From NCBI RefSeq assembly GCF_028583425.1, contig NC_072794.1, positions 31,431,232-31,495,231 of the forward strand: 64,000 nucleotides of DNA, in the 5' to 3' direction. The notes under the pieces were generated by a model. That model was not told where the DNA came from and made no database searches. It worked only from the letters and a program-made list of their open reading frames with translations. Shown here piece after piece: positions 3,401-40,192 of this stretch (position 1 is the first letter of the stretch; the number at the start of each line of letters is the position of its first letter). The position numbers and the translations under genes were made by a program. This DNA is from Eublepharis macularius. Lineage: Eukaryota > Chordata > Lepidosauria > Squamata > Eublepharidae.

Positions 3401-6400
3401 GAAAGGAAGGGGGCTTTTTGTTGTGTGTACAGTGCAGAGAAAATCCAAGTTTCTGTTCTCTTCCCAGAGTGTTTGATGACACAGATATTTAACAACACTG
3501 GACCAGACAACAATCTGGATGTCGTTATCTCTTTGCTGGCCTTTGGCTTATACCCCAATGTCTGTTACCACAAGGAGAAGAGGAAGATTCTGACCACCGA
3601 GGGGCGCAATGCACTGATTCACAAATCTTCTGTAAACTGTCCATTCAGCAGTCAAGACATGAAATACCCTTCACCATTCTTTGTTTTTGGAGAAAAGGTA
3701 GGTAGGCATAAAACAAATGCTGAGTCAACAAATGATCTTGTGCTTTTGAATATACCATTCAACAATTAAAGGGTATATTCAAGGGGGAGGGAGGATCAGT
3801 TTCTTTCAGTGCCCCCTAAAATGTCCACATCTTTCCAGTTTTTTTTTCCTGGCCCTTCACTTCTCTAACCTTGCTCTGTAGTTCTGCGTTGGCAAATGCC
3901 TTGCTTTTTGGGGGCCATTGGAAGCAAAATGTAGTTTTATGTAACAGAAAGGTCAAAGCTCTTCTTTAAAATATATCTTGTACATTTTTATATGTTGTTC
4001 AGATAACCTGGATTCCAGTATTTTGAGGTTTCATTCAGAATTATAAAATTTGATACATTTCAGGATGGTAAAGTCAAAGGGGTGTGCGAAGCAGATAGAG
4101 GCTAGTTAGTGGTAGACTGGGACAGAAATGGTGCAAAATCTTTCAGTGTTGGGAGGGTTTTAGCCTTCACTATGACCCTGACATCTAGAAACTTGTTCTT
4201 TGAAATGTGAATGTTGAGCGTGTCATGATTTCATGCAATGCACCGGATCCCATGTGTGCGTGATGTGTATTTGTTCCACTTGCAGATCCGGACACGAGCC
4301 ATTTCTGCCAAAGCAATGACCTTAGTGAGCCCTTTGCAGCTGCTTCTGTTTGGCTCAAAGAAAGTCATATCTGATGGCGAGATTATTGTGCTGGATGACT
4401 GGTATGGACTTCTGGCTGAAACTGGAAGTTAAATGCATGGGGAGGGCAGGTGCTGTGAGGTACAGCAGCTGGATTCTTGGCTTAGAAGTGCTGTATAAAT
4501 TAAGACATAGAAAAATACGATTTTTATTAGTGCATTCTACAGGGAGTGTTGTGCAGCTTTCCTCAGTTAAATCCAAACTGTGAGGTAGTGGATGAATTCT
4601 TGAGGAGCAAATATGAACAAGAACCACTGTGCAGTAGTCATGGAAGTGATCTTGAAACTTTGCACCTTTTCCCTAATCAAGATTTAACTAATCCTTATTT
4701 GGAAAACCCTTTTGACTGAACACTCAGAAGTTTGTATCTTTAATAGTACAGATAAGGTCCTGTTTTAAAGTTTGCTCCAGTTCTTGCACATCTCATAGAG
4801 CGAATGACTGACTACATGACTAATATTGATGACAGTGTTGGTGCATCAAATATGGCAGCAAGAGAGAGAATACAGCAGCTCATTAAAAAAAGACACTTCT
4901 AAATATGTCTGCTCCCTCCTTTCCTGCCAAAAAAAAGTTGAGATCTCTCTCAGCATTCTTGTGAAATTACATTTTTCCATTGCTTTTGGGGGTAGTGAAT
5001 AAGTACATAAGAGTTAAATTCTCACATTGGCCAAATCTGGAGGAGTCAGGATGGTACAAGAGATGGGAACAAACAATTGCCATAATAAAATGGAAATAAA
5101 AGTATGGGTCATGTTGAATTGCAGCTAGCACCCCAGAAATTTTAGTTGCCTTGTAGAATGCTTTCTGCCCCAGCAGAGTAATACATTAATGATGGATATG
5201 CTCATTTGAAACTGCTTTCTCTACTTAGGCTCAAACTGTGCATGCCACACAACGCTGCTGCTTGTATTGCTGCCTTGCGTGCAGCAATGGAAGCCCTTGT
5301 TGTAGAAGTAACTATGAACCCAGAAATCATCAGCCAGCTGGACCAGCTGAATGAGCACATGCTGTCTGTAATTCGACAGATCTCCCGACCCATTGCCGCT
5401 GGCATCAACCTTGCAGCCGGCAGTACAAGGTTCGTGCCAGCCTACCATCACACAAATGCCCCTGAGAGCATTTTCAGCGACCAGGGATCAGAAAGCGGGT
5501 GGCTCTTACTTATCATTTGGGGGCTAGTTAAGACAGGAAACAGAGTCAGAATAAATGCCCCGTCTTCACAGTGGAGGGAGGTAAACTGTGAGGATCCGCA
5601 GGGGTCTAGATACTGTATCTAACAAATCATCTGAAGGGGAGGAAGTCAGATTTATGGGTTGGTGTGAAAATGTTCAGGTTAGTAAAATAGTGCAGTCCTC
5701 CATGAGGTCCTTGCATGACTGACCAGGCAAGCAGATGGCAGATAAGATTCAAGTGTTAAGTGCAAAGCAATGAACAAGGAAAAGGTAAGCATGATGTTAG
5801 GAGATAAGGGACAGTTAGAACATTGTTTACCATCCTCGTTGCTTCAAACCAGCAAAGGTATGATAAAACTAGAGAAGGTATAAAAAAGGGTATGCAATAG
5901 AAAGGTTTAAATCAGTTAAAACTTTTGAAATACATAAAAGGAGGAGGCTGCAGATGTTTGTAGACATAAGTGGTATAGAGTATGAAGAAGGGAAAATTGT
6001 CCTCAGAATACTTAATTGTTCTTTAAAATAGTTAAATACATACCAAGCTTCTATGCTTAGTCACCAATGTGAAATTGTGATTTCTTATAGACGGTGTGTG
6101 TATACATATATGAGTAATGGCTTTCATTTTGCCTCTAGATTTGGTGACGGACCTCGCCCCCCCAAAATGGCTCGATATGACAATGGAGGAGGCTACAGAG
6201 GAAGAGGAGGCAGTGGGTGGCAAAGTGGGGGATACAGAGGCGGCTATAACTCTTCTCGTGGAGGTGCTGGAGGAAGGGGATATTCAGGGGGTGGAGGTGG
6301 ATTTCGAGGTGGTGGTGGCAGTTTTAGGCGACCATCTGGAGGCTTTAGAGGTTCCGGTGGAGGATTCCAAAGTGGGGGAAATAGAGGAAGTGGGTTTAGA

Positions 6401-6421
6401 GGAGGATGGAGTGGTTACTGA
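450..6421 (+). CDS. DHX9: DHX9 (ATP-dependent RNA helicase A), 3' part: last eight coding exons
   Basis: DHX9 unwinds RNA and DNA duplexes in the nucleus and acts in transcription, splicing and the control of structured or inverted-repeat RNA. Coding exons with GT-AG borders are 450-610, 1910-2021, 2401-2562, 2688-2815, 3468-3697, 4286-4401, 5229-5429 and 6139-6421 (TGA 6419-6421). Together they give about 463 residues, roughly the last third of the 1270-residue human protein. Exon 1 here carries [16 protein letters not shown], and the next three carry the HA2 region ([34 protein letters not shown]). Exons 3468-5429 cover the OB-fold region ([29 protein letters not shown]). The last exon has the nuclear-transport segment [15 protein letters not shown] and a Gly/Arg tail with about five RGG motifs. 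Exon phases join without a break. The 5' two thirds lie outside the window. Identification rests on near-identity to the recalled human protein. Confidence 0.97.
4772..4903 (+). other. 43-codon coding-like fragment in a DHX9 intron, unrecognised
   Basis: An open stretch of about 43 codons lies in the intron between DHX9 exons 4286-4401 and 5229-5429. It reads [18 protein letters not shown] and continues to [15 protein letters not shown] and a stop. It is not part of DHX9, because the flanking exons join in phase without it. The amphipathic, charged composition looks more like real protein than translated intron, so it may be the C-terminal end of a retrocopy. I do not recognise the parent gene and cannot exclude chance. 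Confidence 0.25.
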
Positions 6422-6612: not shown

Positions 6613-7979
6613 CCCTGTCCTGGGCACTGCTTGTTTTTTGTTTAGTGCTTCAGCTTGAGGCAAACTCAGGGAGTCACAAATAATATCAAACATAAACATA
6701 CAGTGAAATACTAATACTAGAAGCCAAAAAATCGTCCGTGCACTGTGCTATATGCTCCACTCAAGAAGTGTGAAATGGCAAATAAGTAGAGCAAGAAGCC
6801 GAAGTAGGAGTTTATAACTACAGCTTAAAGCAGGTTCCAGGCTGAGCTTTAAATTCTAAAGCAGGGGTCTCCAACCTGTGGACTGTATGCAGCCCCCAAG
6901 CTCTTCCTGTGCAGCTTTCCAACCTGCTTGTTTGCTGCTGTCCTCAATGCATTTTCCCTCAGATCCACACTCTTCTTCCTGCCTCAAAAGGCACCACCGA
7001 CAGCTGTTCTTCCTGTTCCTTTTTTGAAAACACAATAACATTGTTTCTTCTGGTCTCCATCTTCCTCCTGTTAGCCCCTCTTGGTCTTATCTTCCATGCT
7101 AGCATTTTGGCCACCCTGGGTGCTTTGCTAGCCAGCACATCTCAGGTGTGTGTGTGTGGGTGGGGGTGTGTGTGGGGATACAAAATATTTTGCATACCAT
7201 TCATTTCTAGAAGCTCCACCCATCAAGGTACCTCCAAGTGGCAGTTCCAAGGTTACTGGTGGTGTTGCTTCTGCAGGCAAAAGCTCAACAAGAGCTGGTT
7301 GCTTTGTCTTTTTGCCTTGCTTGCTTCTGCCTCTCTTCCCCTACCCACTCCCGCTAGGAGTCTTCTCATACATCTGTGATTGCAGGAGCTGGTGAGTTGG
7401 TCCCTTGGGTTAAGAGGGAAGGAGTACCCTCTTAGCAGGGAAGCTTATGGGATCCCCCTTCCCACATCTTCCTCTAGCCCAAGTTCCCCTCCTCCTCGGC
7501 TGCCGTTTTGCTTCTCATGATTGAGGCTTGGCTGGCAGGCAGTGATGTGTATGTGTACCCTGCATATAATTTGAAATCAATGGCATATCCCTCCACTTCA
7601 GGTGGGAGGCTGCCCTTTTATTTGCTTTCTACCTGCCCTTTTTTGGAGGGCCCCCAAAGCATTAGCATGTGCAGATTCAAACCTCACAGCAGTGTGTTTA
7701 TTAAATGTGCTTAGGATTGCAACTCTGTAAGCTGGTAGGTCAGATTCATAAATTCATTAAAAAAATTTTTTCCTGGCCTGTGCATATAGCACAATACTCC
7801 TGAGAACTGTAGAGGCAGGGGTTCTTCTGTGCCATGATCAAAATGAAAATCCCCAGCTAACAGCAGTTAGAGTGGGGGGGATTTGATGAGAGGGAAGTTA
7901 GACCCCCCAAAAACTATACTTACATTTAATTCAACAAATTAAATTAAATGAAACTCTGCAATTGCTGCTCTGCTAAAAA
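6613..7979. other. Intergenic sequence after DHX9; no gene seen
   Basis: Mostly unassigned sequence. At 6864 the run CAGGGGTCTCCAACC resembles a hAT-type transposon end, and about 7145-7178 is a GT-rich microsatellite. Open frames at 6909-7379 and 7150-7395 have no recognisable protein features and lie partly on the GT repeat. Confidence 0.5.
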
Positions 7980-8490
7980 TATGTAAGATGTCTGCAAAAG
8001 AAAGTTTCAAAGAAATGAAAAACTGCAGACGAGTATGTCTTTAATGACGAACTACTGAGTAATTTGTTTTAAACAAGGATAAAACGGTTTGCTTGATACA
8101 TTTTGAAACTGAGTAATTAAAGGAGTACAATGTTAAGTGGCACTTTGAATCCTGTCACAAGAGCTACTCAATATGTCGAGGAGAGGTGCGAGTGAACAAG
8201 ATAAATTCACTTGAAAAAAATTTTTTTTAAAGCAAAATAGTTTTAGAAAGCACATTGAGGAGAACCTGTCTACTGTGAGGGCCAGCTATAAAGTTGCTAA
8301 ATGTATTGCTGAGAGTGGTAGGCCATTCACTGATGGCAAATTAAAAAGTGTGTGGTTAAAGTACTGGAGGAAATATGCCCTGATAAGGTATCTTGTGTTA
8401 GTTGTATAAGTTTATCTGCATCTACAATCATCAGCTGTGTTGAACCAGAAGTGCTGCATGTCACTAATTGTCAAGGCAAAAAGTTTTGTT
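7980..8490 (+). mobile_element. Decayed hAT-type transposase gene, left fragment (GTF2IRD2/ZBED-like)
   Basis: Broken reading frames here resemble the N-terminal half of hAT-type transposase-derived proteins of the GTF2IRD2/ZBED class. A finger-like segment KEYNVKWHFESCHK lies near 8110-8160. It is followed by SYKVAKCIAESGRPFT at about 8285-8335 and ICPDKV...ISLSAST at 8370-8430. Several stops and frame changes interrupt it, so it is a fossil. The similarity stops at about 8490, exactly where the DIRS element begins, and resumes on the other side of that element at about 20817. No transposon ends were found with confidence. Confidence 0.7.
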
Positions 8491-8494
8491 CTCC

Positions 8495-8607
8495 CTCTGA
8501 GGCGGAGGACATCTTGGGTTGTTCCCACCATCCAATCGGGGAGGCAGGAAGTTGAATCTTCTTCCTCTTCCTTTGGAGTGTGCGGGACCACCCTCTCTCC
8601 TCAGTTC
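8495..8607 (+). repeat. DIRS left inverted terminal repeat
   Basis: This 113-bp block matches the reverse complement of 20668-20782 with few differences. Shared landmarks are GACATCTTGGGTTGTT, GGGGAGGCAGGAAGTTGAAT and GGACCACCCTCTCTCCTCAG. Confidence 0.88.
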
Positions 8608-11600
8608 TGTTCCTGCCTCCGGGGAGAGCAGTTCATACTAGGCTAGCGTTGCTACCTTGTTCCTTTTTCTCCTTGCTAAATCTTCTTACTCTTTACCTTA
8701 TCTTACTTTAACTCTCCTTTTTTCTCCAGTTTTTTCCCTTCCCTTCCCTTTAGTTAGGGCAGTAGAGAAGGCTTCCAAGGCCTTGCAGGAGTCATCGGAC
8801 TTGGAGGACAGTTTTTTGGAGAAGGCACCAGGCCGTTGCCAAGGAGCCGTACTTCTGGCGGTGGGGACAAACCCAGCCAGCGCCAGCATATCCTCTCTGA
8901 TTGCCAGGCTCCCCGGCAAGGAATGACCACAATGGAGACTCAGCCTTCCAAACGGGCCGGTCTGTCACAGAGGGCCCTGGTTTCTGAGATGTGCCAGGGT
9001 CTGGCGACTGAGAGCAGCACTGCACGGAGGAGCTCTTGTTTGGCAGGAAGAAAAAGCGCAGCAGCCATTTTCCCGCCAAAACCAGACGACGTGCTTGCCA
9101 ATCTCCTGGCGGGAGAAGCGCAACAGGAAAGACCTTCCGGCACTAAATGCCTCTATCTGCCCCTTATCTCCGTAATTTCTAACCGTACTGAGACAGATGA
9201 TGAGAGAGGAAATCTTGTCACTCTGCCAGGCCAATATTCTGTGTCCTAGCCAGGTTAACCCTGGCCCTTCTCCAGGGACCTCTCAAAGGGGTCAGGAGCA
9301 GGGTGGACCATGGCCTACCAAGGCGGCCAGAAAGAGACCCCAGACCAAAGTCCTGAATCAGTCTCCCAGGTGGCCTGAGGAGGATCCCTCACTCAGTGAG
9401 GAATCTGATGAGGAGGGAGTTTCTATCTGAAGAAGAAGAGCAGGAAGAGGTCCCCGCTTCTGAGCAGGCTATCAGGCTGTTTCACTCTGAGGACTATCAG
9501 TACCTCCTAGCTAAAACCCTGTCAGCTCTTGAGTTACAGGAGGTTCAACTGGGGGAGGAAGAGGAAAGCAAGTTGGGGGGGAACCAAATCCAGACCCAAG
9601 GGTAATGGAGAGTTCTTCCCCAGGTCAAAGGAAAGGGCCAAGGTGTTTCCCTTCCCAGAGTTCTTTGAATGCCAGTTAAAGGCTGAATGGAACATGTCAG
9701 CAGCATGCAAGCAGTTTCCCAATGCCCTTAAAAAGTTGTATATGATGCCTGAATTTACTAACGAGTTATTGCAGGTCCCAGTTATCGATGCCCCGGTGGC
9801 AGCTCTTCAGTCTCAAGGCCTTCTGTCTGAGGATGGTCAAGGGACCATAAAGGACTTTCTAGACAGGAAAGGTGACGCTGCCTTGAAGCGGACTCATGAG
9901 GCTGTTGCCATGGCAATCAAGGCCTCTGCCATAGCATCAACCGTCTCAAGAGCGTCGGTAGTTTGGATCAGGAGACTGATGGAGCTTCTGCCGGCAACCA
10001 ACAAGCGAATGCTAGAATTCTCAAGGCTAGCACCTTCACAGCCAATGCCACCCTCGACGCCATGTCCTTCGCATCTAGAGCAATGGCCTCAGCAAACGTG
10101 GCCAGACAGCTCCTGTGGCTGCGAGCCTGGCCAGCAGACATGCAATCAAAAACCATTCTGACGTCTTACCCATATCAAGGAAAAAAGCTTTGGAGATCAG
10201 CTGGAAAAGATCCTCGTGGAGACCAAAGATAAGAGAAAGGCCTTACCAAGATCCTTGAAGAGAACAGAGAGACGGGGGTCCAGTTTCCAGCCCTTCAGGT
10301 CTCACCATACGCTGCCAAGAGGTCGTCAGGACTTCAAACGCACACGGAATCCTCCAAGGTCCCAATTTCACAAGGGAAGTTTCCAGCCCAGGTCCCAGAG
10401 ACAGCAAGGGGGTCGTGCTGCCAGGCACGAACCAGAGGACAGAGGGCAGAAGCCCTGACTCTACAGCCGCTCGGTAGGAGGGAGACGACTTCTTTTTTAC
10501 CAGGCTTGGGTCGAATCCATCGCTGATGCCTAGGCCAGAGAAGTGATATCTTCAGGTTACTCAATAGAATTAGTCTCCTTTCCGCCAGAGTGCTTCCTTG
10601 TGTCCCCCCTCAACAGGAATCTGCTCAGACGTGCGGCTATGCTACAAGCCGTCTGGCATTTACTAGACATCAAGGCGGTGGAACCAGTCCCCCTCAACAA
10701 AAAAGGAAAAGGCGTTTATTCGATCTTCTTCATGGTTCCCAAGAGGAACAAGGTCTGGAGATCCATCCTAGACTTGAAATATGTAAATCGCTTCATCAAG
10801 TTGTGCCATTTTCGTATGGAGATGTTTCTATTGCAGAGGCCCTGCAGCAAGGGGAGTTCCTCACCTCGATAGATCTGACAGAGGCATATCTGTACGTCCC
10901 TATAGCTGTGTCTCATCGCTAGTTCCTATGATTTTGCGTGAAAGACTTGCACTTCCAGTTCCAGGCAATGCCCTTTGGCCTCGCCACAGCACCGAGGGTG
11001 TTTACCAAACTTCTCATCGTACCAATAGTCTGGCTGCGAGAGATGGGTCTCCATCTACACCCATATCTGGACGATATCCTGATCAGGTTGGCCACTCAGG
11101 AAACCTCTCACAGGGAAACAGCACTCACGATCTACTTTCTAGACAAGCACGGCTTCCTCATAAATACTTCCAAGTGCTCACTGCAACCGTCTCAACACCT
11201 GGAGCATTTGGGACTAAAAATAGACACTCAGAAAGGACTGTTCTACCTTCCCAGGGAGAAGGTCAACAAAACCAAGCAGATAGTATCTGCTGTCATCAAA
11301 CAACCATCCTCCCTCCTGTTGGAATTGTCAAAGCTTCTGGGTCTTTTAATAGTGGATGCAGAAGCAATATACTGGGGCCGTTTTCACACCAGGCCACTAC
11401 AGAAGCTGCTTCAACCCTTTCAATTTCAGATTGCCTGAAAGGAGGCCATCAGAGTACGGGTTCCTCCTGTTGTCAGGAGGAGCTTACAGTGGTAGACTTT
11501 CAACGCAAACCTCCAACAGGGCAAGAATTTCCTCACCCCCCCAATTCACTCAGTTGTTCACGGATGCCAGTCTGAGAGGATGGGGAGCCACACTCAACGG

Positions 11601-12502
11601 CTCCCTGGTGCAAGGACTATCGTCCGGGGTGGAGAGGTCTCTACCAATCAATGTCCTAGAAATGAGGGCCATTTATCTAGCGTTGACACACTTCAGGGAC
11701 AGGATAGCTCATCATCACATCCTGATTCACATGGACAACGTCGCTGCAAAGATCTGTATGAAAAAGCAAGGGGAAACCAGGTCTTCCAGGTTGCAACAGG
11801 AAGCTTACAGAATCATCACTTGGGTGGAGACTCTGCAGTCGATCCAGGCGGAACATATCAAAGGAATGCACAACATCCAAGCGGATTGGCTGAGCCAGGA
11901 GTGCCTTCATCTGGGAGAATGGTATCTCTCTTGAGAGAGATGTTCTGCCTTGTGTCAGATCACTTCGGAAAGCCTCAGGTGGATCTGTTCGCCTTGCACC
12001 TGAACTGTCAAGTCCCCTGCTTCTTCTCGAGGTACTTCCACCCAGCAGCAGAGGGCACGGATGCTTTGACGTCTCCTTGGCCGGTGGGCCTCCTGTATGC
12101 CTTCCCTCCACTTCCAATACTACCCAAGGTGCTCAGGAAGATAGTGGAGCAGGGGCGAGGGTGGTACTGATCGCGCCGCTGTGGCCACGGAGACCATGGT
12201 TCTCAACCTTGTGATACTTGTCAGAGGAGCCTCCTCCTTTGGCTACCAGTCCTACCGGATCTCCTACAGCAGGGGCCCGTTTGGCACCCTCACCCGGAGT
12301 GGTGGTCCTTGACCAGGTGGAAATTGAGAGGGAATCTCTTCACCGCAAAGGCTACCCGTCGGAGATCAGAGAGATGCTACTGGCTTCCAGGAAGAAATCC
12401 ATGTCCAGGATATACAACATGACCTGGAAAGCCTTGGCCAGATGGTGTAGGAGGAAGAAGGTAGATCCTTTACAGTCCTCCTTGAGTAGCTTCCTGGGCT
12501 TC

Positions 12503-13254
12503 TGTAATGATTCCAAGTAAATGTGTGCATGTGTCTTTAAATGCTTGGTTTGAGCTAGGTGAAGAGTAGGGGTGAGAGAGGGAAGAGAGTGTTATGATTG
12601 GTTGATGACTGAGTGGGCGGAGTGAATGCAGTTTAGACTGACAGGGCAGAGAGAAAAGTTTCAGTCAGAAGAAAGCAGGCTAGCTGCGTGCTGCCTGAAT
12701 ATGTTGAAATATTTATGAGAGAAATATAACCTGTGTGGAACCTGAACTGAGCATGTTTGTGAAAGGACACTCAGTCAGGGAAAGGGAGGCCAGCTGTGTG
12801 CTGCCTGAGCAGGTTTAATATTTCTGTGAATAAGAGTCAGAGAGGCTAGCTGTGTGCTGCCTGAGGAGTTTCAAGCATTTCTGTGAGACAAATACTGAGT
12901 TAGAGAAAGAGGCTAACTGTGCATGAAACCTTGGAAGAGATCTGTGTGAATGAGAGTAAATGAAGTAACTTTAAGCACCGAGAACTACTTTTATGAAACC
13001 AATACGCTTCTTAACTAAATAAAAGTTTATTTTGTTTTATTATATCCCAGTGTAGCTGTCATTGCTATATTCCACTCCTATCCTCAGGGCCACATAGAAC
13101 CACGAAGGAGCCTGACGCTTTGGGAACGTTACCAAAGGGAAGATTTAAATAAAATATCTTGGAATAAAATATTCCTGGTGGAAGCAGACTACCCAGAGGG
13201 TTAAGGGATAGATTAAAAGAAAAATCTACCCCAAGGAAAATAAAGGTCGTAACA
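12503..13254 (+). mobile_element. Solo LTR inserted in the DIRS recombinase region
   Basis: A 752-bp block starts TGTAATG and ends GTAACA. It is flanked on both sides by the 5-bp direct repeat GCTTC (12498-12502 and 13255-13259). DIRS recombinase sequence continues on either side of it. A polyadenylation signal AATAAA lies at about 13018, placing the R/U5 part to its right. The upstream part holds three to four imperfect copies of a motif like GCTAGCTGTGTGCTGCCTGA at about 12679, 12789, 12845 and 12910. This is an LTR left after internal recombination. An endogenous retrovirus is likely, but a Gypsy-type element is not excluded. The intact 5-bp duplication and TG...CA ends suggest moderate age. 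Confidence 0.82.
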
Positions 13255-14165
13255 GCTTCCCACAAGAGGGACCGGACAGAGGCCTTAAACTGGCGACTCT
13301 GAAGAAGCAAGTAGCAGCAATCAGCAGGATTGTCCCAGTGATGGAGGGAGTTCCTCTTGCATCACATCCTCATGTTCGCAGATTTCTTGGGGGGGGCACT
13401 CCTGAGTCATCCGACGGTGCACCGGTTCCTGACATGGCGTCTACATGCCGTTTTGACTGCACTTACTAGGGCGCTCTTTGAACCAGTCAAAGACTTTTCT
13501 TGAAATGGCTGAAACTGAAGACTCTTTTTGGTGGCCATCACCTCCACTCGCCATATCTTGGAATTGGCCGTCCTGTGTATACGACTGGACTTGTGCATAT
13601 TTCATAGGGACAAGGTTGTGTTAAGAACGTACCCTACCTTTCTGCCAAAAGTCTATTCTAAATTTCATTGGTCTCAAGAAATTAATTTGTCCTCGTTCTG
13701 CCCAGATCCAAAACATCTGAGGGAAAAGGATTGACACAGTCTCGATGTGAGGAGAACACTCAAGGCATATATTATTAGGACAGAATCGATACGTCAGACG
13801 GACTCTCTATTCATTAACATCTCCTGTCCCAACCTGGGACAACGTATGTCTTCGGCGGCCATTGCGTATGGCATCAAGTCATGCATCAGGGAGGCCTATA
13901 AGGTCTTGAAACTTGAGATCCCGACTGGCATTATGGCACACTCACCCAGGAGTGCAACGACCAATGCCACCCTTTGAAGGAATGCTTCTGTTGAGGACAT
14001 TTGCAAGGCGGCTACTTGGTCCTCACTGTCCGCGTTCGTTCGGCATTACCATCTACACATGAATTCATTAGCCGATGCTGCATTTGGCAGGAGGGTTCTT
14101 CAACAAGTAATAGTAGATGAAGATCTAATCCCACCCAGAGAGTAGTGAACTGCTTTGGGAGCACC

Positions 14166-14254
14166 CAAGATGTCCTCCACCTCAGAGGAAGAATGGACCT
14201 TTGGACACTTACTGTGAAGAGTCCTTCTCCTCTGAGGTCAGAAGGACATCTTGC
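14166..14254. repeat. DIRS internal complementary region
   Basis: The first half (CCCAAGATGTCCTCCACCTC...) is the reverse complement of the element's left outer end near 8495-8518. The second half (GGACCTTTGGACACTTACTG...) is the reverse complement of the right outer end near 20761-20818. In DIRS elements this region is thought to template joining of the two ends into a circle. Confidence 0.82.
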
Positions 14255-14422
14255 CCTCCCTAGATCTTTGCTTAGCAGTGAGGGGCTTCAACAGAGGTCT
14301 CACCGTTCTTTTCTCCTCTACTGCATGATTTAGTCTATCTTGTTGATCTTAACGCCTTCTATTTTTTCCTTTCTACCATACATAGGACTCTTTTGCAGTC
14401 ACAAATTAGTCATAGATACATG

Positions 14423-14439
14423 GAATTACTGCTGTTGGG
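14423..14439 (+). repeat. L1 target-site duplication, left copy
   Basis: GAATTACTGCTGTTGGG, identical to 20643-20659. It lies in DIRS sequence that continues on the far side of the L1. Confidence 0.93.
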
Positions 14440-15351
14440 GACTTCCGGTTTGGGATCCATGGAGGTCTGAAGCAGCTCCATTTGCGGAGCTGACCGGACT
14501 GCCGTTTTAAGCGGCCGGTGGGGTGAAAATAGCCCGCGGCCGACTGCTCTCAGGCGGAGAGCAGGCAAAGAACGCTCGAGACCCTAGGGTGAGTTAGATC
14601 TCGGACGAGAGGGGCTCTACACAATGGGTCCCCTCCCGATCCTTGAGGTCCCACCCTGCGACGGGTCGGCTACAATCTCTGCGGCAGTTCTGGGGCCAAT
14701 TCGGCTGGCATAAGATCTACATACCCAAGCTTCGATTGGGGGAAGAAGTGGAGAGGAGAAGTTAAAATCGAAACAGCGATTACAACCCGAGAAAAGTGAA
14801 GGAGAAGGTAAAGATCACTATCTTCCGATACGGGACAGATTGATAAAAGCAGAGAGGAAAAAAAGTAGATTTTTAAACTGCAACAGATTAAGGAAAAGGA
14901 GGGGAAGATTCGGCAAGAGTTGTATTTGAAAAGAGACTAAGTTTAAAGAAGTTATTAAGGAAATCGGACTATTGTTTTGAATACTTGCAGTTATGAAGCT
15001 GTGAGAAAAAGACACCATCGCGAGATCTGCTGTGGGAAGTTGGGAGACAGGAAGTGCGTAATAACAATAGAGTGGCTGGAGAGAAGCGGCCCTTGCTAGA
15101 GGGCAGGAAGAAGGGAATCGCCATCTTTGAAAGGGGAAGGGTCGCGGCTTCAGCGGAAAAGGAAGTAGGCCATTTTGGATTACAAAATCATAGAGAGACC
15201 ATAGAGAAAAGACGCCCGACATTTTGGACTTTTTAAAAACTAATTTATGCAAGAAGACCGGGACATTTGAAATAAAAAAGGTATTAAATTTAACGCCACG
15301 GAGTTAAGGAAGAGAGCGGACTCGTGGGAGCGAGCCAAAGCAAGCCCCACG
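14440..15351 (+). promoter_or_regulatory. L1 5' UTR / internal promoter region
   Basis: A 912-bp leader before ORF1. The first 250 bases are rich in G, C and CpG, as expected for an L1 internal promoter, and the remainder is purine-rich. No upstream ORF of clear function is seen. Confidence 0.7.
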
Positions 15352-16146
15352 ATGTCGAAAAAAGAGTGGCAATCGGCAATAGAAAACCTGGATAAAAAAC
15401 TTTTAGAGGTGATTAAAGAGTTCAAAGACATGAAATTGGAGCTGATTAAAGAGGTTAAACAGACAGTAAAATCGGAGCTGTCAAAAGTAAAATCGGAGCT
15501 GTCAGAAGTGAAGAAAGGTATGGAAACAATACAAAATGAATTACAAGGAACGCAGCAGAGAGTTAAAACAGTAGAAGGAGCGATGGAAAATTTAGCAGAC
15601 ACGCAACAAACAGAGATGAGACTGATGAGGGGAAGAATGGCGGTTGCGGAAAGTAGACACATGGAGAAGCAGCTGAGATTTCGCGGTCTGCCGGAGGTGG
15701 AAGGAAAGACAGCGCAAGAACAGATGACTGAGGTGTTAGCTGAATACCTGGGGAAGGAGGAGGAGGAAGTTGTGGCTATCCTTGATGTGGCATATCGTGT
15801 AAACTCGAGAATTGCAACCCAGAGGAAAGTACCAAGAGATGTGATTGTGCAATTTACAACACGAAACATGAAAGAGAAGATTGTGACTAAACAGTTTCAA
15901 GACCCATTGGAGATCGATGGCAAGACAATTATCATAATGAAGGAATTACCCAGATCAGTGTTACTAGATCGGAAAAAATATAAAGTGCTAATCCAGATGT
16001 TGAAGGACATGAAAATCAGGTACAGATGGGAGCTTCCAGAAGGTTTGTCCTTTGAATTTGGAGGGGCCAAAAAGCGCATTAGATCTGAGCGAGAGATGGA
16101 GCGGTTTATAAGGGACAATGAAAAAGACTTACCAACAAGATTATGA
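15352..16146 (+). CDS. L1 ORF1 protein (RNA-binding chaperone)
   Basis: 264 residues, complete. L1 ORF1p coats L1 RNA as a trimer and is needed for retrotransposition. Residues 10-105 are a long coiled coil rich in K/E/L heptads. It includes an internal duplication (KSELSKV-KSELSEV, coded by a 21-bp tandem repeat near 15472-15514). Residues 106-200 match the RRM-like domain (LRFRGLPE, DVIVQF), and residues 205-264 match the C-terminal domain (YRWELPEGLSFEFGG). The ATG at 15352 sits in the first long open frame after the 5' UTR. The stop overlaps the ORF2 start in the tetranucleotide ATGA. At 264 residues it is shorter than the human protein (338), mainly in the N-terminal part. Confidence 0.93.
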   Translation: MSKKEWQSAIENLDKKLLEVIKEFKDMKLELIKEVKQTVKSELSKVKSELSEVKKGMETIQNELQGTQQRVKTVEGAMENLADTQQTEMRLMRGRMAVAESRHMEKQLRFRGLPEVEGKTAQEQMTEVLAEYLGKEEEEVVAILDVAYRVNSRIATQRKVPRDVIVQFTTRNMKEKIVTKQFQDPLEIDGKTIIIMKELPRSVLLDRKKYKVLIQMLKDMKIRYRWELPEGLSFEFGGAKKRIRSEREMERFIRDNEKDLPTRL

Positions 16147-19100
16147 GTATGGAGTGTAAAGTTTTATCTTGGAATGTAAATGGACTAAATTCACCGAATA
16201 AGAGGAAAAATATTTTCCACTGGCTACTAAAACAAAAATGTGACATTGTTTGTTTGCAAGAGACCCATATTCGAAAGCAGGATGTAAAATATTTAAAATT
16301 GGGAAAATTGGGCAAGGAATTTGTAGCGGCCTCAAATAAGAAAAAAAGAGGAGTGGTGTTGTATTTAAAAGAGGAGCTACAGCCAAAATTCGTAATGAAA
16401 GATGTGGAAGCCAGATTTATAGCAGTGGAATGTACTTGGAATTTAAAGAGAGTGTTGGTAGTCGGAGTTTACGCACCTAACGGTGCAAAAGAAAGCTTCT
16501 TTGAGGATTTGAGGAAGCAACTAGACGATCTTTCATATGACCAGATAATTCTTGCTGGAGACTTCAATGGAGTGACAAATTTGGAACTAGATAAAAAGAC
16601 AATAACGGCACAAAAGAAAAGAGGACTATTACCAAAGCTCTTTTTTGAGTTGATACAACAGGAAACTCTAGAAGATGTATGGAGAAGAGAATATCCCAAA
16701 AGCAGACAGTTTACTTTTTATTCTGCAAGGCACTCTACATTATCAAGAATCGATATGATCTGGGCCTCAAAAGACTTAGCGTTTTGGACTAAGGAAGTAG
16801 AAATAATGCCGATGGTAGGCTCAGATCATAATCCAATTATGTGGAAATTAGGGAAAAGGAGAAAAAGGAAAGCATGGAGAATAAATGAGGACTTGCTACA
16901 GGAAGGAGAGAATATGGAGATGCTGAGAAGAGAGACAAAGTTCTTCATACAATATAACGTGAATAAAGAAGTACCAACTGATAAAGTTTGGGACGCTTAT
17001 AAGGCGGTTATAAGGGGCATACTAATGGACTTAAATGGCAGAGCAAGAAAAAAGAAAGAGGAGAAAAGACAAGAGATTGAGGAGAAAATAAAAGCCAAAG
17101 AAATACAGTTAAAAAAGAGACCAGGGAAAAAGAAATTATATCAGGAAATAAAAATACTTCAACAACAGTTAACAGCAATGAGTAACAAAGAATTGGAGTG
17201 GAATCTTAAAAGACTGAATCAGAAAGCGTTTGAAGGCGCAAATAAACCTGGGAAGTACCTGGCATGGCAATTGAAGAAGAGAAGGGAAAAGAAAATAATA
17301 AATAAAATTTGTGAAGATAATAAAACGTATTTGGAACAGACTACCATTAGTAGAGCCTTTTATAAATTCTACGCTAAGCTGTACAATAAGAAAGAGGTAA
17401 ATAAAGAATCAATAGCGTCATATTTGGAGAAAACGAAACTTCCAGTAATCTCGGAAACTTGGAGAAACAAATTGAACAGTGAAGTAGCGGACGAGGAAAT
17501 AAGTAAGGCAATACAATCTGCAAATCTAGGAAAGGCGCCAGGGCCAGATGGACTTACGGCTAAATTTTATAAGACAATGGCCAATGAACTGGCACCATTC
17601 CTAAAAGAGGTGATTAATGGAGTTCTAAGGGATCAAAGGATTCCAGATACCTGGAATGAAGCGAATATATCATTGATCCCAAAAGAGGGCCAAGACTTGA
17701 CTAATGTGAAAAACTACAGACCTATATCGTTACTTAACAATGACTATAAAATCTTTGCGAAGATATTGGCGGAGAGACTGAAGGGGTGGCTCTCGGAAGT
17801 TATAGAGGAGGAACAAGCAGGCTTTTTGCCAGACAGACAAATCAGAGACAATTTAAGGATAGTGATTAATGCTATTGAATATTGTGACAAGCGTTGTGAC
17901 AAAGAGGTTGGTTTCTTCTTTGTTGACGCAGAAAAGGCGTTTGACAATTTAAACTGGGACTTTATGTTTGCCACTATGGAAAAGCTACAAATGGGAGAAA
18001 GATTCATCAGAGCAATTAAGGAAATTTACAGAGACCAGACTGCAGCAATTGTGGTGAACGATGAAGCGACTAAGAAATTGACTATAAGTAAAGGAACAAG
18101 ACAAGGTTGCCCACTGTCTCCACTGTTGTTCATTTTAGTATTGGAGATCCTGATGATACACATACGACAAGACGAAGAAATTCGAGGAATAAAAATAAAG
18201 GACTATTCATACAAGGTCAGAGCATTTGCGGATGATATAATGTTAATTGTAGAGGACCCATTGGAGAACATGCCAAAAGTGATAGATAAGATTAAGGAGT
18301 TTGGAGACTTGGCAGGTTTTTACATTAATAAAAAGAAGTCAAAGATATTATGCAAAAATATGACTAAGCAGAAACAACAATTGTTAACGGAAATAACGGA
18401 CTGTGAAGTAACAAGTAAGGTGAAATATTTGGGAATTGAACTGACTGCAAAGAATATAGACTTATTTAAAAACAACTATGAAAAACTATGGACTCAGATA
18501 GAGAGAGACTTGATTAAATGGAATAGGCTGAATTTGTCATGGTCGGGTAGGATTGCAGCAGTTAAGATGAATGTGTTACCAAGAGTAATGTTTTTGCTAC
18601 AGACGATACCAATCATCAGAGACTCTAAGCAATTCGAAAAATGGCAGAGGAAAATATCAGATTTTGTATGGGCAGGCAAGAAGCCTCGAGTGAAAATGAA
18701 AGTTCTACAAGACGCAAAAGAAAGAGGCGGAATGCAACTGCCCAATCTGAGACTTTACCATGACGCAATCTGCCTAGTGTGGTTGAAAGAGTGGATGACG
18801 TTAAAGAACAAAAAACTATTAGCCCTAGAGGGATACAAAAAAAATATTCGGATGGCACGCATACCTATGGCATGATAAAGTAAAGGTGAACTCGATGTTC
18901 CTGCATCATTATATACGGAGAAGTTTATATATAATCTGGAAGAAGTACAGAACTTATCTACAAGAAGGAACCCCTTTGTGGGTAGTTCCATATGAGGTGA
19001 TAGATCCGAGAGCGGTTGATAATGAGCAACAATGTTTAACTTATAAAGAAATAACTAGAACTGAAGCATCCAAACTTAGAATAAAGACGCAGGAGGAACT

Positions 19101-19905
19101 ATCACCTTATTATGACTGGTTCCAGTACAGACAGATTAGAGATTTATATAATTCGGACTCTGTAAAGGGAGGTATACGAACAGAGAATTCGGAACTAGAG
19201 CAGACCCTTCTTAAAGAGGACAAGAAAAGAATATCTAAGGTATACCAAGTACTGTTGAAATGGTATACTGAGGATGAGATAGTTAAAACACAAATGGTGA
19301 AATGGGCTATAAATTTCAATAAAGAAATAACAATGGAGGCATGGGAATACTTGTGGAAGACTACAATGAAGACAACGACATGTACTAGTATTAAAGAGAA
19401 CATTTACAAAATGATCTATCGTTGGTACATGACACCAAAGAAGATTGCGCTAGGGAATTTGAACACTTCTAATAAATGCTGGAAATGCAGGAAGCATGAG
19501 GGCTCCCTCTATCATATGTGGTGGTCGTGTGAGGTAGCTAGGCAGTACTGGGGGGAAATAATAAGAGAAATGAGTGAAATTTTGCAATTTCAAGTAAATA
19601 AGAACCCAGAACTCCTGCTACTAAACTTGGGAATGGAGGGAATTCCAGCCCATCATAGGACGTTGATATTTTACATGACGGTAGCAGCTAGAATTTTGTA
19701 TGCGCAAAAATGGAAAGTACAAGAAGTGCCAACTATTGAAGATTGGATCTACAAATTGCTGTATATGGCAGAAATGGACAAGATGACAAGAAAACTGAGA
19801 AATCTGGACTCAGGGCAGTTTAACACAGACTGGGAGAAGCTGAAACAATATTTGGAGAAGAAATGGGAGGTGGGAGGAGAACTGTGGCAGTTTAAGAACT
19901 ATTGA
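16143..19905 (+). pseudogene. L1 ORF2 protein (endonuclease-reverse transcriptase), one frameshift
   Basis: ORF2p nicks target DNA and reverse-transcribes L1 RNA at the nick. The first frame runs 16143-18875 (910 residues). The remaining part continues in another frame, 18886-19905. The change of frame lies at an A8 run, 18837-18844. Endonuclease motifs: WNVNGLN (residues 10-16), QETH (Glu40), GDFNG (about 140) and SDH (227-229). RT motifs: GKAPGPDGL, NYRPISLL, AFADD (FADD at about 695-698) and TRQGCPLSP. A C-terminal Cys/His knuckle of pattern CX2CX8HX4C is coded at about 19477-19530. Total length of about 1250 residues is normal for L1. Everything except the one frame change looks intact, so it is a young copy, or the extra base is an assembly or sequencing error. 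Confidence 0.93.
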
Positions 19906-20642
19906 AGTACAATAAAATGTAGAGGGGGGTGACTTTACCGGGGGGGAGAAGAGGCAAACGTGAATCTCTAAGCAGTCAGGTTAATAGATTGATATATATA
20001 GAATAACAAATAGAATATTGATAGAAAATAACTAACCATAAGGGTTAACTATAAGGACTGATTAATTAATAATATTTTCTTTCTGGTAAGATTTGTATAA
20101 TGTACCAAACTGAATATGTTTATTTGAAGATATATATGAGTCAAATTGATTGATTATATGATGATAGTTATATAGATTTACTATTGAAGGGGAATAGAAA
20201 TATTAATGTAATTAAACATAACTAAAATAGAAAGAAGAAGATAGAAGGAGTAACATATAGAGTATAAGTCAAATTGTTTGATTTATATGAATGTATGATT
20301 TATATGGTTTATATGGTTTATGATCTATAGAAATATTTGAAATTGGAATTATGAAAAATGGGATAAATTGTCTATCCAATATGGAAATAAGGACTCATAG
20401 TTTGGGTACAGAGTATTAAAAATAGTTAAAGAAGTATTGCTTAGAATAAAGGGAGAATATACATCTGTTAGATAGAGGAATTTAAAAGGAGTAAGGGAGA
20501 AGGGACAAAGGGTTGGAAAACTGTTGGAAGTCAACAAAAAGGGGGGGAAAGGGAGGGGGTTAGAAATTGGAAAATGGGAGAATTGATTGTAATGTGAAAA
20601 TAATTGATCCTAACCCAATAAAAAAATTTTCAAAAAAAAAAA

Positions 20643-20659
20643 GAATTACTGCTGTTGGG
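20643..20659 (+). repeat. L1 target-site duplication, right copy
   Basis: Second copy of the 17-bp repeat, immediately after the L1 poly-A tail. Confidence 0.93.
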
Positions 20660-20667
20660 AGTCACCT

Positions 20668-20818
20668 GAACTGAGGAGAGAGGGTGGTCCCACACACTCC
20701 AAAGGAAGAGGAAGAAGATTCAACTTCCTGCCTCCCCGGTTAGATGGTGGAAACAACCCAAGATGTCTTCCTAACCTCAGAGGAGAAGGCCCTTCTCCGT
20801 AAGTGTCCAAAGGTCCAT
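20668..20818 (-). repeat. DIRS right inverted terminal repeat with outer extension
   Basis: Positions 20668-20782 are the reverse complement of the left repeat. The extra outer stretch 20783-20818 is absent on the left but is mirrored in the internal complementary region. This asymmetry is normal for DIRS elements. Confidence 0.85.
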
Positions 20819-21420
20819 TTTCTTTGGCATTAAATGACAGCAATGACATAGACATTGCTCAACTACTAATATTATCAGGGGGACAGATTCCAACTTCAGA
20901 ATTACAGAAGAGTTGTGTGCACTGCAGACTTTGAAAGGCGCTACAACTGCAGAAAACATATTCTTAAAGGTGTGTGAAACAGTAGAAAATCTTGGTCTGA
21001 GTTGAGATAAATTGAAAAGCATCACAACTGATGGTGCAAGAAATATGGTGGGAAGTAAAACTGGTCTAGTTGCAAGACTAAATGAAGATATACTGAAATT
21101 AAACGGTACACTTCCCATGCAATTTCACTGCGTCATCCATCAGCAAGCCTCATGTAGGAAGCTTCAGTGAGAAAATGTGATGTGTATTATTGTATCCAGC
21201 ATTAATTACATCAAACATGGCCTTACTCATCATCAGTTTCAAAATTTTCTCTCAAATAAATACCGACTATGGAGATATATTGTACCATGCAAAAGTCAGG
21301 TGGCTTAGAAGAGGCCAAGTCCTCAAATGTTATTTCAGGTGTTTGTCATGAAGTTGATGTCTTTCTCAAGGAGAAAGGAAAAGGTCTATTCTGAATGTTA
21401 TGTGATCCTCTCTTGTGTCC
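20817..21420 (+). mobile_element. Decayed hAT-type transposase gene, right fragment
   Basis: This continues the fossil that stops at 8490. The first residues after the DIRS right end read FSLALNDSNDIDIAQLLI, matching the DDE-domain start of this class (consensus FSLALDES-D--DTAQL). Further blocks follow: KLKSITTDGARNMVGSKTGL at about 21013-21073, QFHCVIHQQA at 21121-21150, and a degenerate RWL-RG-VL segment near 21295-21335. The order and spacing match the hAT catalytic domain, with scattered stops. The decay is heavy, so this is the oldest layer of the nest. Confidence 0.75.
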
Positions 21421-22512
21421 TGGATGAAAATGGGGGAAAGGGTTCAAGTAGAAGCTCCTTGGTAAAGAAGCAGAACAACAGCTGAACAACAACAACTACC
21501 ATCCAGTAGTAGGGACCTGTAAGAGCAAAACTAAGTAACTAGTAACTAAACCATAGCTACCTCTTGAATTATGGATAGTCTTACGGGCACACTGCCAAAG
21601 TACCAGTTAGACTATTCATACTATGCAGTAAATGAAAAATTTGTCTGCTATGGAGGTTAGGGTCTCCCTGAAGGACAGCTCACATACTACTTTAGGCTTC
21701 TCACTCTAAAAAAAAGCCTGCTGTATGCAGCCTATGTACAAGGATGCTCTGAGCACATCTGATTTAATGGAACTGACTCTGTGACAAGTAGCTGCATGAG
21801 CTGATTTCTCATACCTTTGGGGATATGGTATATCACATATTACAGTTTTTGACAATGAACCCATCTAGCCTTGCTTTTGGTGACATCCAAACCAAGCAAT
21901 CGTAGCATGCTCTATACAGGGCTATCTGTGAAGTCTTCAGACTTCAGCTGGTACAAAAAACACAGCAGCAAGAGCATTTATTGATACTTTTAGTAGTGAT
22001 ACCAACTAAAGCCAGTTCTGTATCAGATACCTACTTGTTTCTGGGTCAGTGTGCTGGTGCTGTCCTTTAAAAGCACAAAACAGGATCAAAGAGAATTTTT
22101 TTTTTAAAGTATAGCATGTAAGAAAAATTATTAACACATAAGACTCTAGATATATCCTACTTTTGATTCTTCATCAGATTCCTAAAAAAATTCCAGGCAA
22201 AGCGTATCCCAGCAAGTGGGGCAACAGGCTGGAAAATCTGTAAGATGCAAGACAGACCACTCCCTTTTGTACTGACCTCAATCATTATTGTCCTCAAAGA
22301 AACTGACTCAAATAATTCTGAAGCAGAGGAAAGTAATCCCAGCGGTAAATCACCAAAAATGGTCTGTACATTCCAACATGCAAAAGATACCAGTTAGATA
22401 ACAATCAAAATCTGTAAACTATGATCTGTTGTCATTACTCACTTTAATTAAGAGAACAAATATTTTGTTAGCTTCACAGCAAGAAACAGCTGAAACTGCA
22501 AAGCCTACTGGC
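21421..22512. other. SHCBP1L 3' UTR (minus strand) and flanking unassigned sequence
   Basis: No gene or clear repeat is seen. Read on the minus strand this is downstream of the SHCBP1L stop codon. A plus-strand TTTATT at 21977-21982 reads AATAAA on the minus strand and could be its polyadenylation signal, giving a 3' UTR of about 0.55 kb, but other signals are possible. Confidence 0.4.
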
Positions 22513-38239
<15,727 letters not shown>

Positions 38240-38630: not shown

Positions 38631-40192
38631 AGTCCTGTTAGTCTGTCTGTAGCAGTAAAAAAGACCAAGAGTCTAGTAAAATCAAAAAGAGTCCAGTAGC
38701 ACCTTTAAGACTAACCAATTTTATTGTAGCATAAGCTTTCGAGAATCACAGTTCTCTTCGTCAGATGCATGGAGAGCAAAAAGAAACTGGTCAGATATAG
38801 AGGAGGAGAGGGGAGGGCGGAGTAGATGCAAACAGCTCCTTCTGATATGGAGATGCAAACAGCTCATTCTGATATGGAGATCAGTTTGCTTCTGTTGAGG
38901 AAATCAGTTACCTTTGATAATGAGATAACCATTCATAGTCCCTGTTCAGTCCCAGCTTGACAGTCAAATTTACATATGAATTCCAATTCAGCAGCTTCCC
39001 ATTGGATTTTGTTTTTGAAAGGTTTCTGTTGAACTACAGTGACCTCTAAGTCTTTGATGGAATGTCCTGGTAGATTGAAGTGTTCTCCCACTGGTTTCTG
39101 GACGTTTCCATTTCTAATGGCAGATTTGTGTCCATTTATTCTTTTGCGTAGAGGTTGGCTCATTTGTCCAATGTACAGAGCAGAAGGACATTGTTGGCAC
39201 ATGAGGGCATATATCAGATTGGAGGATGAGCAGCTGTAAGAGCCAGAGACAGTGTAGTTGATGCCATTGGGTCCTGTAATTGTATTCCCTGGGTAGATAT
39301 AGGGGCAGAGCTCGCATCTGGGTTTGTTGCAGGGCCTGGTACCTGTGCTGGTGACTCTGCTGGCCGATTCATGGTTGTGAGTGAGAAGTCGTTTAAGGTT
39401 GGGGGGCTGTCTGTAGGCAAGGAAAGGTCTTCCACCCAGGGCTTCTGAGAGAGAGGTATCATTTTCCAGGATGGGTTGTAGCTCACTGATGATACGTTGG
39501 ATGGGTTTGAGCTGGGAGCTATAGGTGACAACCAGTGGTGTTCTGTTGTTAGTTCCTTTAGGTTTGTCCTGGAGTAGGCTGTTTCTGGGTACTAGTCTGG
39601 CCCTGTTGATTTGTTTCCTCACTTCATTTGGTGGGTACTGTAGCCCCAAAAATGCTTGTTGTAAATCTCTTAAGTGGGAGTCCGGATCAAGAGCATTGGA
39701 GCAGATACGGTTGTAACGCAAGGCTTGGCTGTAGACAATTGACCGAGTGCTTTGTGTTTAGGGTGGTAGCTGGAGGCATGTAGATATGAGTATCGGTCTG
39801 TGGGTTTCTGGTATAAGGTGGTATTTATTCGTCCATTATGTAGTTGTACAGTGGTGTCCAGGAAGTGTACCTGTTGTGTAGAGTGGTCCAGGCTCAGGTT
39901 GATAGTAGGGTGAAAGTTGTTGAAGTCCTGATGAAATCTCTCAAGGGCTTCCTTCCCATGGGTCCAAATGATGAAGATGTCATCCAAGAATCTTAAGTAT
40001 AGTAGTAGTTCCAGTGGATGGGAGCTGAGGAAGCGTTGTTCCAAGTCCGCCATGAATATGTTAGCATATTGTGGTGCCATGCATGTGCCCATGGCTGTGC
40101 CATTAACCTGTAGATATAAGCTGTCACCAAATTCGAAGTAATTGTGAGTCCAGTAGCACCTATAAGACGACCAAAATCTGTGGTAGGGTTAG
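38631..40192 (-). mobile_element. Penelope-like retroelement (RT plus GIY-YIG endonuclease), 5'-truncated and broken
   Basis: Minus-strand reading regions encode the C-terminal part of a Penelope-type reverse transcriptase (motif GTCMAPQYANIFM and catalytic RFLDDIFIIW, about 40092-39960). They then encode a Cys-rich finger (RPCNKPRCELCP, about 39340) and a GIY-YIG nuclease domain (SALYIGQ...LRKRINGHKSAI, about 39190-39100), ending near 38933. The 3' region holds a duplicated 27-bp motif (38829-38883) and the hammerhead-like terminal segment (38665-38770). At the 5' end, 40148-40192 is a piece of the same terminal sequence abutting the truncated RT. Such repeats at both ends are typical of Penelope insertions. 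The coding region is interrupted. Confidence 0.85.
38665..38770 (-). ncRNA. Hammerhead-ribozyme-like motif at the Penelope 3' end
   Basis: The minus strand reads GCATCTGACGAAGAGAA, then TTCTCGAAAGCTTATGCTAC, giving the CTGANGA core, stem II GAGAA/TTCTC and GAAA. A candidate stem III of three pairs is AGC/GCT. Small hammerhead variants with very short stem III are known from Penelope-like elements. Self-cleavage is inferred from the motif only. Confidence 0.5.

What the first reader, a model, noticed from the sequence alone, without database searches (positions are those of the whole stretch)
7980..21420. Four-layer transposon nest with a readable order of insertion
A hAT-type transposase fossil stops at 8490 and resumes at 20817, at a continuous place in the protein family. 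The interruption is one DIRS copy with both inverted ends. Inside the DIRS copy are a solo LTR with a 5-bp duplication and a full-length L1 with a 17-bp duplication. The borders are clear enough to order events: hAT, then DIRS, then LTR and L1. This gives an internal clock for four element classes at one locus and explains most of the DHX9-SHCBP1L spacing.
Basis: partly seen in the sequence, partly recalled or inferred. Interest (0 to 1): 0.75.

Follow-up and report, generated by a model that had tools for sequence, protein, structure and literature searches.

The report
Ordinary nest of four transposons
Between two neighbouring genes of this animal a retrotransposon landed inside an older DNA transposon and was later hit by two more elements; the layers and their order are real and precisely bounded, but such nests are an ordinary feature of animal genomes.

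Summary
The nest is real. In 7 of 7 fetched own-genome paralogs of the hAT-type element, window 8488 runs straight into about 20818, so the two halves are one element. It begins at a terminal inverted repeat at 6862, not 7980, and homology stops at 21386. The interruption, 8489-20819, is a DIRS1-like element: inverted termini, internal complementary region, RT/RNase H and a tyrosine-recombinase gene. Among 29 DIRS paralogs the LTR site is empty in 27 of 27 readable and the L1 site in 25 of 25. The LTR (12503-13254, GCTTC duplication) has 5 of 5 fetched relatives that are also solo. The L1 (14440-20642, 17-bp duplication) starts at the same base as 24 of 29 paralogs. Divergence mostly agrees with nesting: hAT 0.08-0.11, DIRS about 0.02-0.05, LTR about 0.026, L1 about 0.008 per site, suggesting LTR before L1; the whole DIRS branch (0.138) fits only after allowing for change before insertion. 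Corrections: four elements in three levels; hAT borders wider. No other squamate genome was available, so dates are relative. Well bounded but ordinary: nested transposons of known classes.

The parts
6854..6861 (.). putative left 8-bp target duplication of the hAT element (TTCTAAAG); no right partner near 21386
6862..8488 (+). left part of the hAT-type DNA transposon fossil, starting with TIR CAGGGGTCTCCAACC
   Evidence: matches the paralog at L042/L004 at 80.4% (6862-7130) and 78.6% (7176-8487)
8489..8607 (+). left terminus of the DIRS1-like element (inverted terminal repeat; closely paired part 8504-8607)
   Evidence: (95% complementary to 20668-20771)
8489..12502 (+). DIRS1-like element, first segment: presumed gag region (by position only), RT (10932-11438), RNase H (11353-11934), start of the tyrosine recombinase; bases 12498-12502 are the first copy of the LTR's target duplicate
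12503..13254 (+). solo LTR, 752 bp, TGTAATG...CGTAACA, duplication GCTTC at 12498-12502 and 13255-13259
13255..14439 (+). DIRS1-like element, second segment: rest of the tyrosine recombinase gene (to about 14139) and internal complementary region; 13255-13259 is the second copy of the LTR target duplicate
14163..14253 (+). internal complementary region of the DIRS element, complementary to both outer ends
   Evidence: pairs I2, I3, I4
14440..20642 (+). full-length L1, 6203 bp with A-rich tail; ORF1 15271-16146, ORF2 16122-18875 continued in another frame 18829-19905; duplication at 14423-14439 and 20643-20659
20643..20819 (+). right terminus of the DIRS1-like element (first 17 bases are the second copy of the L1 target duplicate)
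20820..21386 (+). right part of the hAT-type fossil (BLAST match begins at 20818, inside the shared TT); homology lost after 21386

Best explanation
Four separate, conventional transposition events at one intergenic site. (1) A hAT-type DNA transposon of roughly 3.3 kb inserted about 0.4 kb downstream of the DHX9 reading frame, decayed and lost its right end. (2) A 5.35-kb DIRS1-like retrotransposon integrated into a T-rich tract of the hAT remnant without a target duplication, as expected for tyrosine-recombinase insertion of a circular intermediate at an NTT core. (3) An LTR element inserted into the DIRS recombinase gene, making a 5-bp duplication, and was reduced to a solo LTR by LTR-LTR recombination (inferred from structure). 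(4) A full-length L1 inserted near the DIRS right end by target-primed reverse transcription, with a 17-bp duplication and A-rich tail (mechanism inferred from structure). Shown here: borders, empty paralogous sites, duplications, relative divergence. Inferred: the biochemical mechanisms, and that (3) preceded (4).
For: hAT continuity in 7 of 7 fetched paralogs with 3-11 bases between the halves; TIRs and the same 8 bases TGTTAGAG outside both ends of the copy in L042. DIRS termini and internal complementary region; of 16 right ends that I picked out for listing, 8 read CCAAAGGTCC(A/G)TT exactly and 8 are close variants, each before a different flank; RT and RNase H by Pfam; recombinase continuous across the LTR (tblastn of the L023 relative: 12257-12511, then 13257-13400 and 13360-14136; that relative hits Phage_integrase at 1.8e-6). 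Empty sites: LTR 27 of 27 and L1 25 of 25 readable among 29 DIRS paralogs. LTR: 5 of 5 fetched copies solo with 5-bp duplications (4 exact, 1 with one mismatch). L1: 24 of 29 paralogs start at the base equal to 14440; an independent full-length copy in L044 matches 14440-20642 at 91.7%. Divergence with Poisson 95% ranges: hAT 0.079 (0.058-0.106) and 0.111 (0.085-0.143); DIRS ITR per arm 0.024 (0.008-0.056), codon positions 1+2 0.046 (0.031-0.066); LTR 0.025 (0.015-0.040); L1 0.008 (0.005-0.013).
Against: No orthologous locus from another squamate could be examined. Terminal branch lengths come from small samples of paralogs, chosen by similarity, and are upper bounds on insertion age. The DIRS branch taken whole (0.138) exceeds the hAT estimates (0.079, 0.112) and by itself would be out of order; codon positions (15:14:50) say that most of it accrued before insertion under selection, but that is an interpretation. 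The L1 differs from the majority of its 29 relatives at 42 of 2100 columns, 2.0%, which overlaps the LTR range; only the branch estimate (0.8%) separates them. The LTR branch rests on 5 relatives. Pfam did not recognise the hAT transposase in the window; a short majority sequence gave only sub-threshold DUF4371.
Confidence: 0.96

Rival explanations
1. The two hAT pieces are separate fragments that happen to flank the DIRS element.
For: The hAT-like family is repeated in this genome (40 scored matches, the window itself included), so chance neighbours are conceivable.
Against: 7 of 7 fetched paralogs join the two pieces with 3-11 bases between them, in the same order and strand; the two pieces show similar divergence (0.074 and 0.097 from the majority of the others).
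Confidence: 0.01
2. The nest is an assembly artefact, repeats joined wrongly.
For: Repeats are where assemblies fail; raw reads were not available; the ORF2 frame break lies at an A run whose length differs from that of L044.
Against: The assembly has 72 contigs for 2.24 Gb and every border shows the biologically expected signature (17-bp and 5-bp duplications, L1 and DIRS ends).
Confidence: 0.02
3. LTR and L1 arrived with the DIRS element, that is, the DIRS was already carrying them when it jumped into the hAT.
For: Not excluded by nesting alone.
Against: No readable sampled DIRS copy has either insert at these sites (27 of 27, 25 of 25); the LTR splits the recombinase gene; the L1 branch is several-fold shorter than the DIRS estimates; a 12-kb element would be about twice the largest of the 28 elements described in PMC3266345 (6283 bp; section 10 read).
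Confidence: 0.01

Closest known systems
DIRS1-like retrotransposons of lizards (AcDIRS1, AcDIRS2 of Anolis; PMC3266345, section 10 read, other passages by find)
   Same: inverted termini, paired internal complementary regions, NTT-type ends, no target duplication, RT-RNase H and tyrosine recombinase; 5354 bp without the inserts against 5938 and 5997 bp
   Different: reading frames broken, recombinase gene split by an LTR, right part split by an L1; Repbase family assignment not tested
hAT DNA transposons (TIRs and 8-bp duplication; the defining features are recalled)
   Same: the paralog at L042 has TIRs with identical 8-bp duplications; the window copy keeps the left TIR
   Different: right end lost; no intact frame; transposase recognised only weakly, from a short majority sequence
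Full-length L1 LINE
   Same: ORF1 with a weak L1 RBD match, ORF2 with endonuclease and RT, A-rich tail, 17-bp duplication; many near-identical copies
   Different: ORF2 is in two frames, with the break at an A run that differs in length from L044
Transpositions in Transpositions (TinT) chronology, PMC3014933 (abstract and section list seen)
   Different: TinT uses thousands of nests in a genome; here it is one

Membership tests
DIRS1-like retrotransposon | inverted terminal repeats | tested here: met
   8504-8607 vs 20668-20771, 95% complementary; 5 of 104 differ
DIRS1-like retrotransposon | internal complementary region matching both outer ends | tested here: met
   pairs I2, I3, I4
DIRS1-like retrotransposon | tyrosine recombinase gene | tested here: met
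   window 12257-12511 and 13257-14136 match the stop-free relative in L023, which hits Phage_integrase at 1.8e-6, just above the cut-off; relatives in L036 and L037 hit it below the cut-off, L011 and the window pieces alone not at all
DIRS1-like retrotransposon | RT and RNase H | tested here: met
   PF00078 5e-9, PF17917 2.3e-7
DIRS1-like retrotransposon | methyltransferase domain | not tested
   region 11940-12220 lies where it is expected (recalled); not scanned on its own
DIRS1-like retrotransposon | no target duplication; NTT core | tested here: met
   hAT flanks resume without duplication beyond the shared TT
hAT transposon | TIRs and 8-bp duplication | tested here: met
   met in the paralog at L042; the window copy has the left TIR only, right end lost
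hAT transposon | hAT transposase | tested here: inconclusive
   no transposase match in window or L042 frames (only unrelated sub-threshold hits); short majority sequence DUF4371 0.0049, below cut-off; no PDB match
L1 LINE | ORF1, ORF2 with endonuclease and RT | tested here: met
   PF03372 1.3e-16, PF00078 1.7e-39; ORF1 PF02994 5e-4, just below its cut-off
L1 LINE | A-rich tail and target duplication of variable length | tested here: met
   17-bp duplication, A-rich 3' end
LTR element, solo LTR | TG...CA ends, short target duplication, copies elsewhere with the same ends | tested here: met
   5 of 5 fetched copies; 40 scored matches including the window, nearly all end to end
LTR element, solo LTR | a full-length parent with two LTRs and an internal part | tested here: inconclusive
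   no two of the 40 listed matches lie within 100 kb of each other, but 3603 candidates were not all scored; the search for an LTR end followed by a primer-binding site did not complete

The most novel reading that the evidence does not exclude
The innermost L1 is so little diverged (terminal branch about 0.8%; 9 of 2100 compared columns with a base seen in none of the 29 paralogs) that it may still be polymorphic in the species, so that DIRS-with-L1 and DIRS-without-L1 alleles coexist between DHX9 and SHCBP1L and give a presence/absence marker. Abundant LINE insertion polymorphism is reported for a lizard, Anolis carolinensis (PMC5389967, title and start of abstract seen in the listing).
Probability: 0.2. 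Interest if true: 0.25.

Novelty: new member of a known kind. Interest (0 to 1): 0.15.

Why it matters
It is a clean worked example in which structural nesting and sequence divergence give a compatible order for four element classes, and it shows a DIRS insertion with base-level borders inside an older element. It is not a new kind of element or mechanism, and one locus does not date anything in years.

Tried and rejected
Rejected: chance neighbours for the hAT halves; assembly artefact as unlikely; co-transported inserts. Rejected as a clock: the whole DIRS branch of 0.138, because codon positions 15:14:50 show selection on most of it. Led nowhere: Pfam on the fossil hAT and window recombinase frames; PDB for the hAT majority sequence and for the DHX9 glycine-rich tail; a right-hand copy of the hAT duplication TTCTAAAG near 21386 (3 matches in the window, none there). 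A query with 14262-14439 returned only the window itself, although one search had shown diverged copies of that stretch (L011, 81.7%): the first look of the genome search misses diverged copies. Not answered and so not done: whether 21380-22100 is itself repetitive, and a search for full-length parents of the LTR. My early note and the query placed the LTR at 12502-13249; one search corrects this to 12503-13254. The script used the old borders, so its 'expected' LTR gaps are 4 bases too large; the observed gaps then agree to the base in most loci. Literature: searches; none of the titles and abstract starts listed there describes this locus; I did not search for it by species.
Full report
What was checked. 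The window lies on contig 5 of a 2.24-Gb, 72-contig assembly. No relatives were available, so the tests use paralogous copies within the same genome.

hAT layer. A 91-base query ending at 8490 gave 40 scored matches, 8 of which were cut out: the window itself and 7 paralogs. In all 7 paralogs the sequence matching up to about 8488 is followed, after 3-11 bases of a T-rich tract, by the sequence that resumes at 20818-20822. Against L004 the match is 78.6% over 7176-8487 and 87.6% over 20818-21386, with a further piece at 7027-7130. The longer stretch of the same copy, L042, has TIRs at 4396 and 8422 with the same 8 bases, TGTTAGAG, outside both. That is 4027 bp, of which about 750 are absent from L005, so the element itself is nearer 3.3 kb. 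The window copy keeps the left TIR at 6862-6876; at E 0.001 the only matches of the L042 element in the window are 6862-7130, 7176-8487 and 20818-21386, and the presumed duplication TTCTAAAG has no right partner nearby. The hAT label rests mainly on these termini: window and L042 frames gave no transposase match and a short majority sequence only a sub-threshold DUF4371.

DIRS layer. Termini 8504-8607 and 20668-20771 are 95% complementary; 14163-14253 is complementary to both outer ends. This is the arrangement described for DIRS1-like elements, which insert by recombination at a 3-bp junction, mostly NTT, without target duplication (PMC3266345, section 10 read, passages; the same ITR and ICR layout in passages of PMC9210276). 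The window ends are TTCTCCC from 8489 and CCATT up to 20819. Of 16 paralog right ends that I listed, 8 read CCAAAGGTCC(A/G)TT exactly and 8 are variants (14 of the 16 end in ATT or GTT), each before a different flank. RT and RNase H are recognised by Pfam. The recombinase of L023, stop-free over 430 codons and hitting Phage_integrase, matches the window at 12257-12511 and then at 13257-13400 and 13360-14136, so the LTR splits that gene. Without inserts the element is 5354 bp.

LTR and L1. One search returned 40 DIRS matches, 30 cut out (L009, the window itself, and L010-L038). Of these 29 paralogs the LTR site could be read in 27 (not L026, L027) and is empty in 27; the L1 site could be read in 25 and is empty in 25. 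L018 counts among the 25, but its 3' part is rearranged. L011, L012 and L013 are exact to the base at the L1 site. The LTR, 752 bp, TG...CA, has GCTTC on both sides; one search scored 40 of 3603 candidates, the window itself included, nearly all matching end to end, the others at 91-95%. The 5 copies fetched (of 39) are all directly flanked by a 5-bp duplication, 4 exact and 1 with a mismatch, so they are solo LTRs too; the parent class is unknown. The L1 query (14440-15040) gave 40 scored matches of 3385 candidates, 30 cut out; of the 29 paralogs, 24 begin at the same first base and 5 begin 1-11 bases further in, with 96.3-98.6% identity over 1062 to 2104 aligned bases. L044 is another, distantly related DIRS copy with its own full-length L1 in the opposite direction; it matches window 14440-20642 from end to end at 91.7%, which fixes both L1 ends independently.

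Relative ages, in substitutions per site. hAT: terminal branches 0.079 (20818-21386) and 0.112 (7950-8488) with 7 paralogs, some of them partial. DIRS: ITR pair 5 of 104, that is 0.024 per arm; ITR pairs of other copies differ at 4 of 98 (L040), 9 of 104 (L013) and 7 of 103 (L043, rearranged) aligned bases. The whole branch of the window DIRS copy is 0.138, more than the hAT values; but its derived changes in RT-RNase H fall 15, 14 and 50 on codon positions 1, 2 and 3, so most of it accrued while the lineage was still under selection; positions 1 and 2 give at most 0.046. In the same region the private changes of L010 and L011 are 17, 9, 12 and 11, 9, 8. LTR: 0.026 with 5 copies. L1: 0.008 with 29 copies, with 9 private columns and 42 differing from the majority out of 2100. 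All are upper bounds and depend on sampling by similarity.

Genes. The window ORF 256-660 contains a stretch matching residues 635-690 of RNA helicase A (DHX9) chains at 8.7e-29, and 5182-5622 one matching 940-1001 at 2.6e-21, on the plus strand. That the glycine-rich frame ending at 6421 is the DHX9 C-terminus is recalled from the human protein; PDB gave nothing significant for it. An SHCBP N-terminal domain lies at 28829-29104 on the minus strand (1.6e-12), and a sub-threshold beta-helix match (9.5e-4) at 24704-25105. That the latter belongs to SHCBP1L is inferred. The genes therefore point tail to tail and the nest lies between them. The DIRS with its inserts is 12.3 kb of about 18 kb between the two nearest coding pieces found; the SHCBP1L stop codon was not located.

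Verdict. Every piece is a member of a known class acting in its known way, and reading chronology from nests is an established method (PMC3014933, abstract and section list seen). The interest is low.

Noticed in passing
window 38933-40188 (-): Reverse transcriptase (PF00078, 7e-7) beside a weak GIY-YIG match (0.004, below cut-off) on the minus strand: looks like a Penelope-like element (the family name is recalled).
   Followed up: no
L018 / L043 6330-6724: A DIRS copy whose 3' end is inverted between the internal complementary region and the right terminus; the only one of 21 DIRS loci with both parts readable. Its right end is shortened, so it is not a perfect isomer.
   Followed up: partly
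L044: Another DIRS copy independently hit by a full-length L1 of the same family, in the opposite direction.
   Followed up: partly
L035 2-141: A fragment of the same LTR family (matching 13026-13164 at 89%) directly abuts the right end of this DIRS copy: here the DIRS may have landed in the LTR, the reverse order.
   Followed up: no
L055 and L061: Two L1 copies share the same 15 bases upstream of the 5' end and are almost identical: a segmental duplication, or insertion into the same repeat.
   Followed up: no
window 12661-12886: The LTR carries three diverged copies of a unit of about 36 bases.
   Followed up: no
window 18837-18844: The L1 ORF2 frame break lies at an A run whose length differs from that in L044; it may be a real mutation or a sequencing error.
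   Followed up: partly
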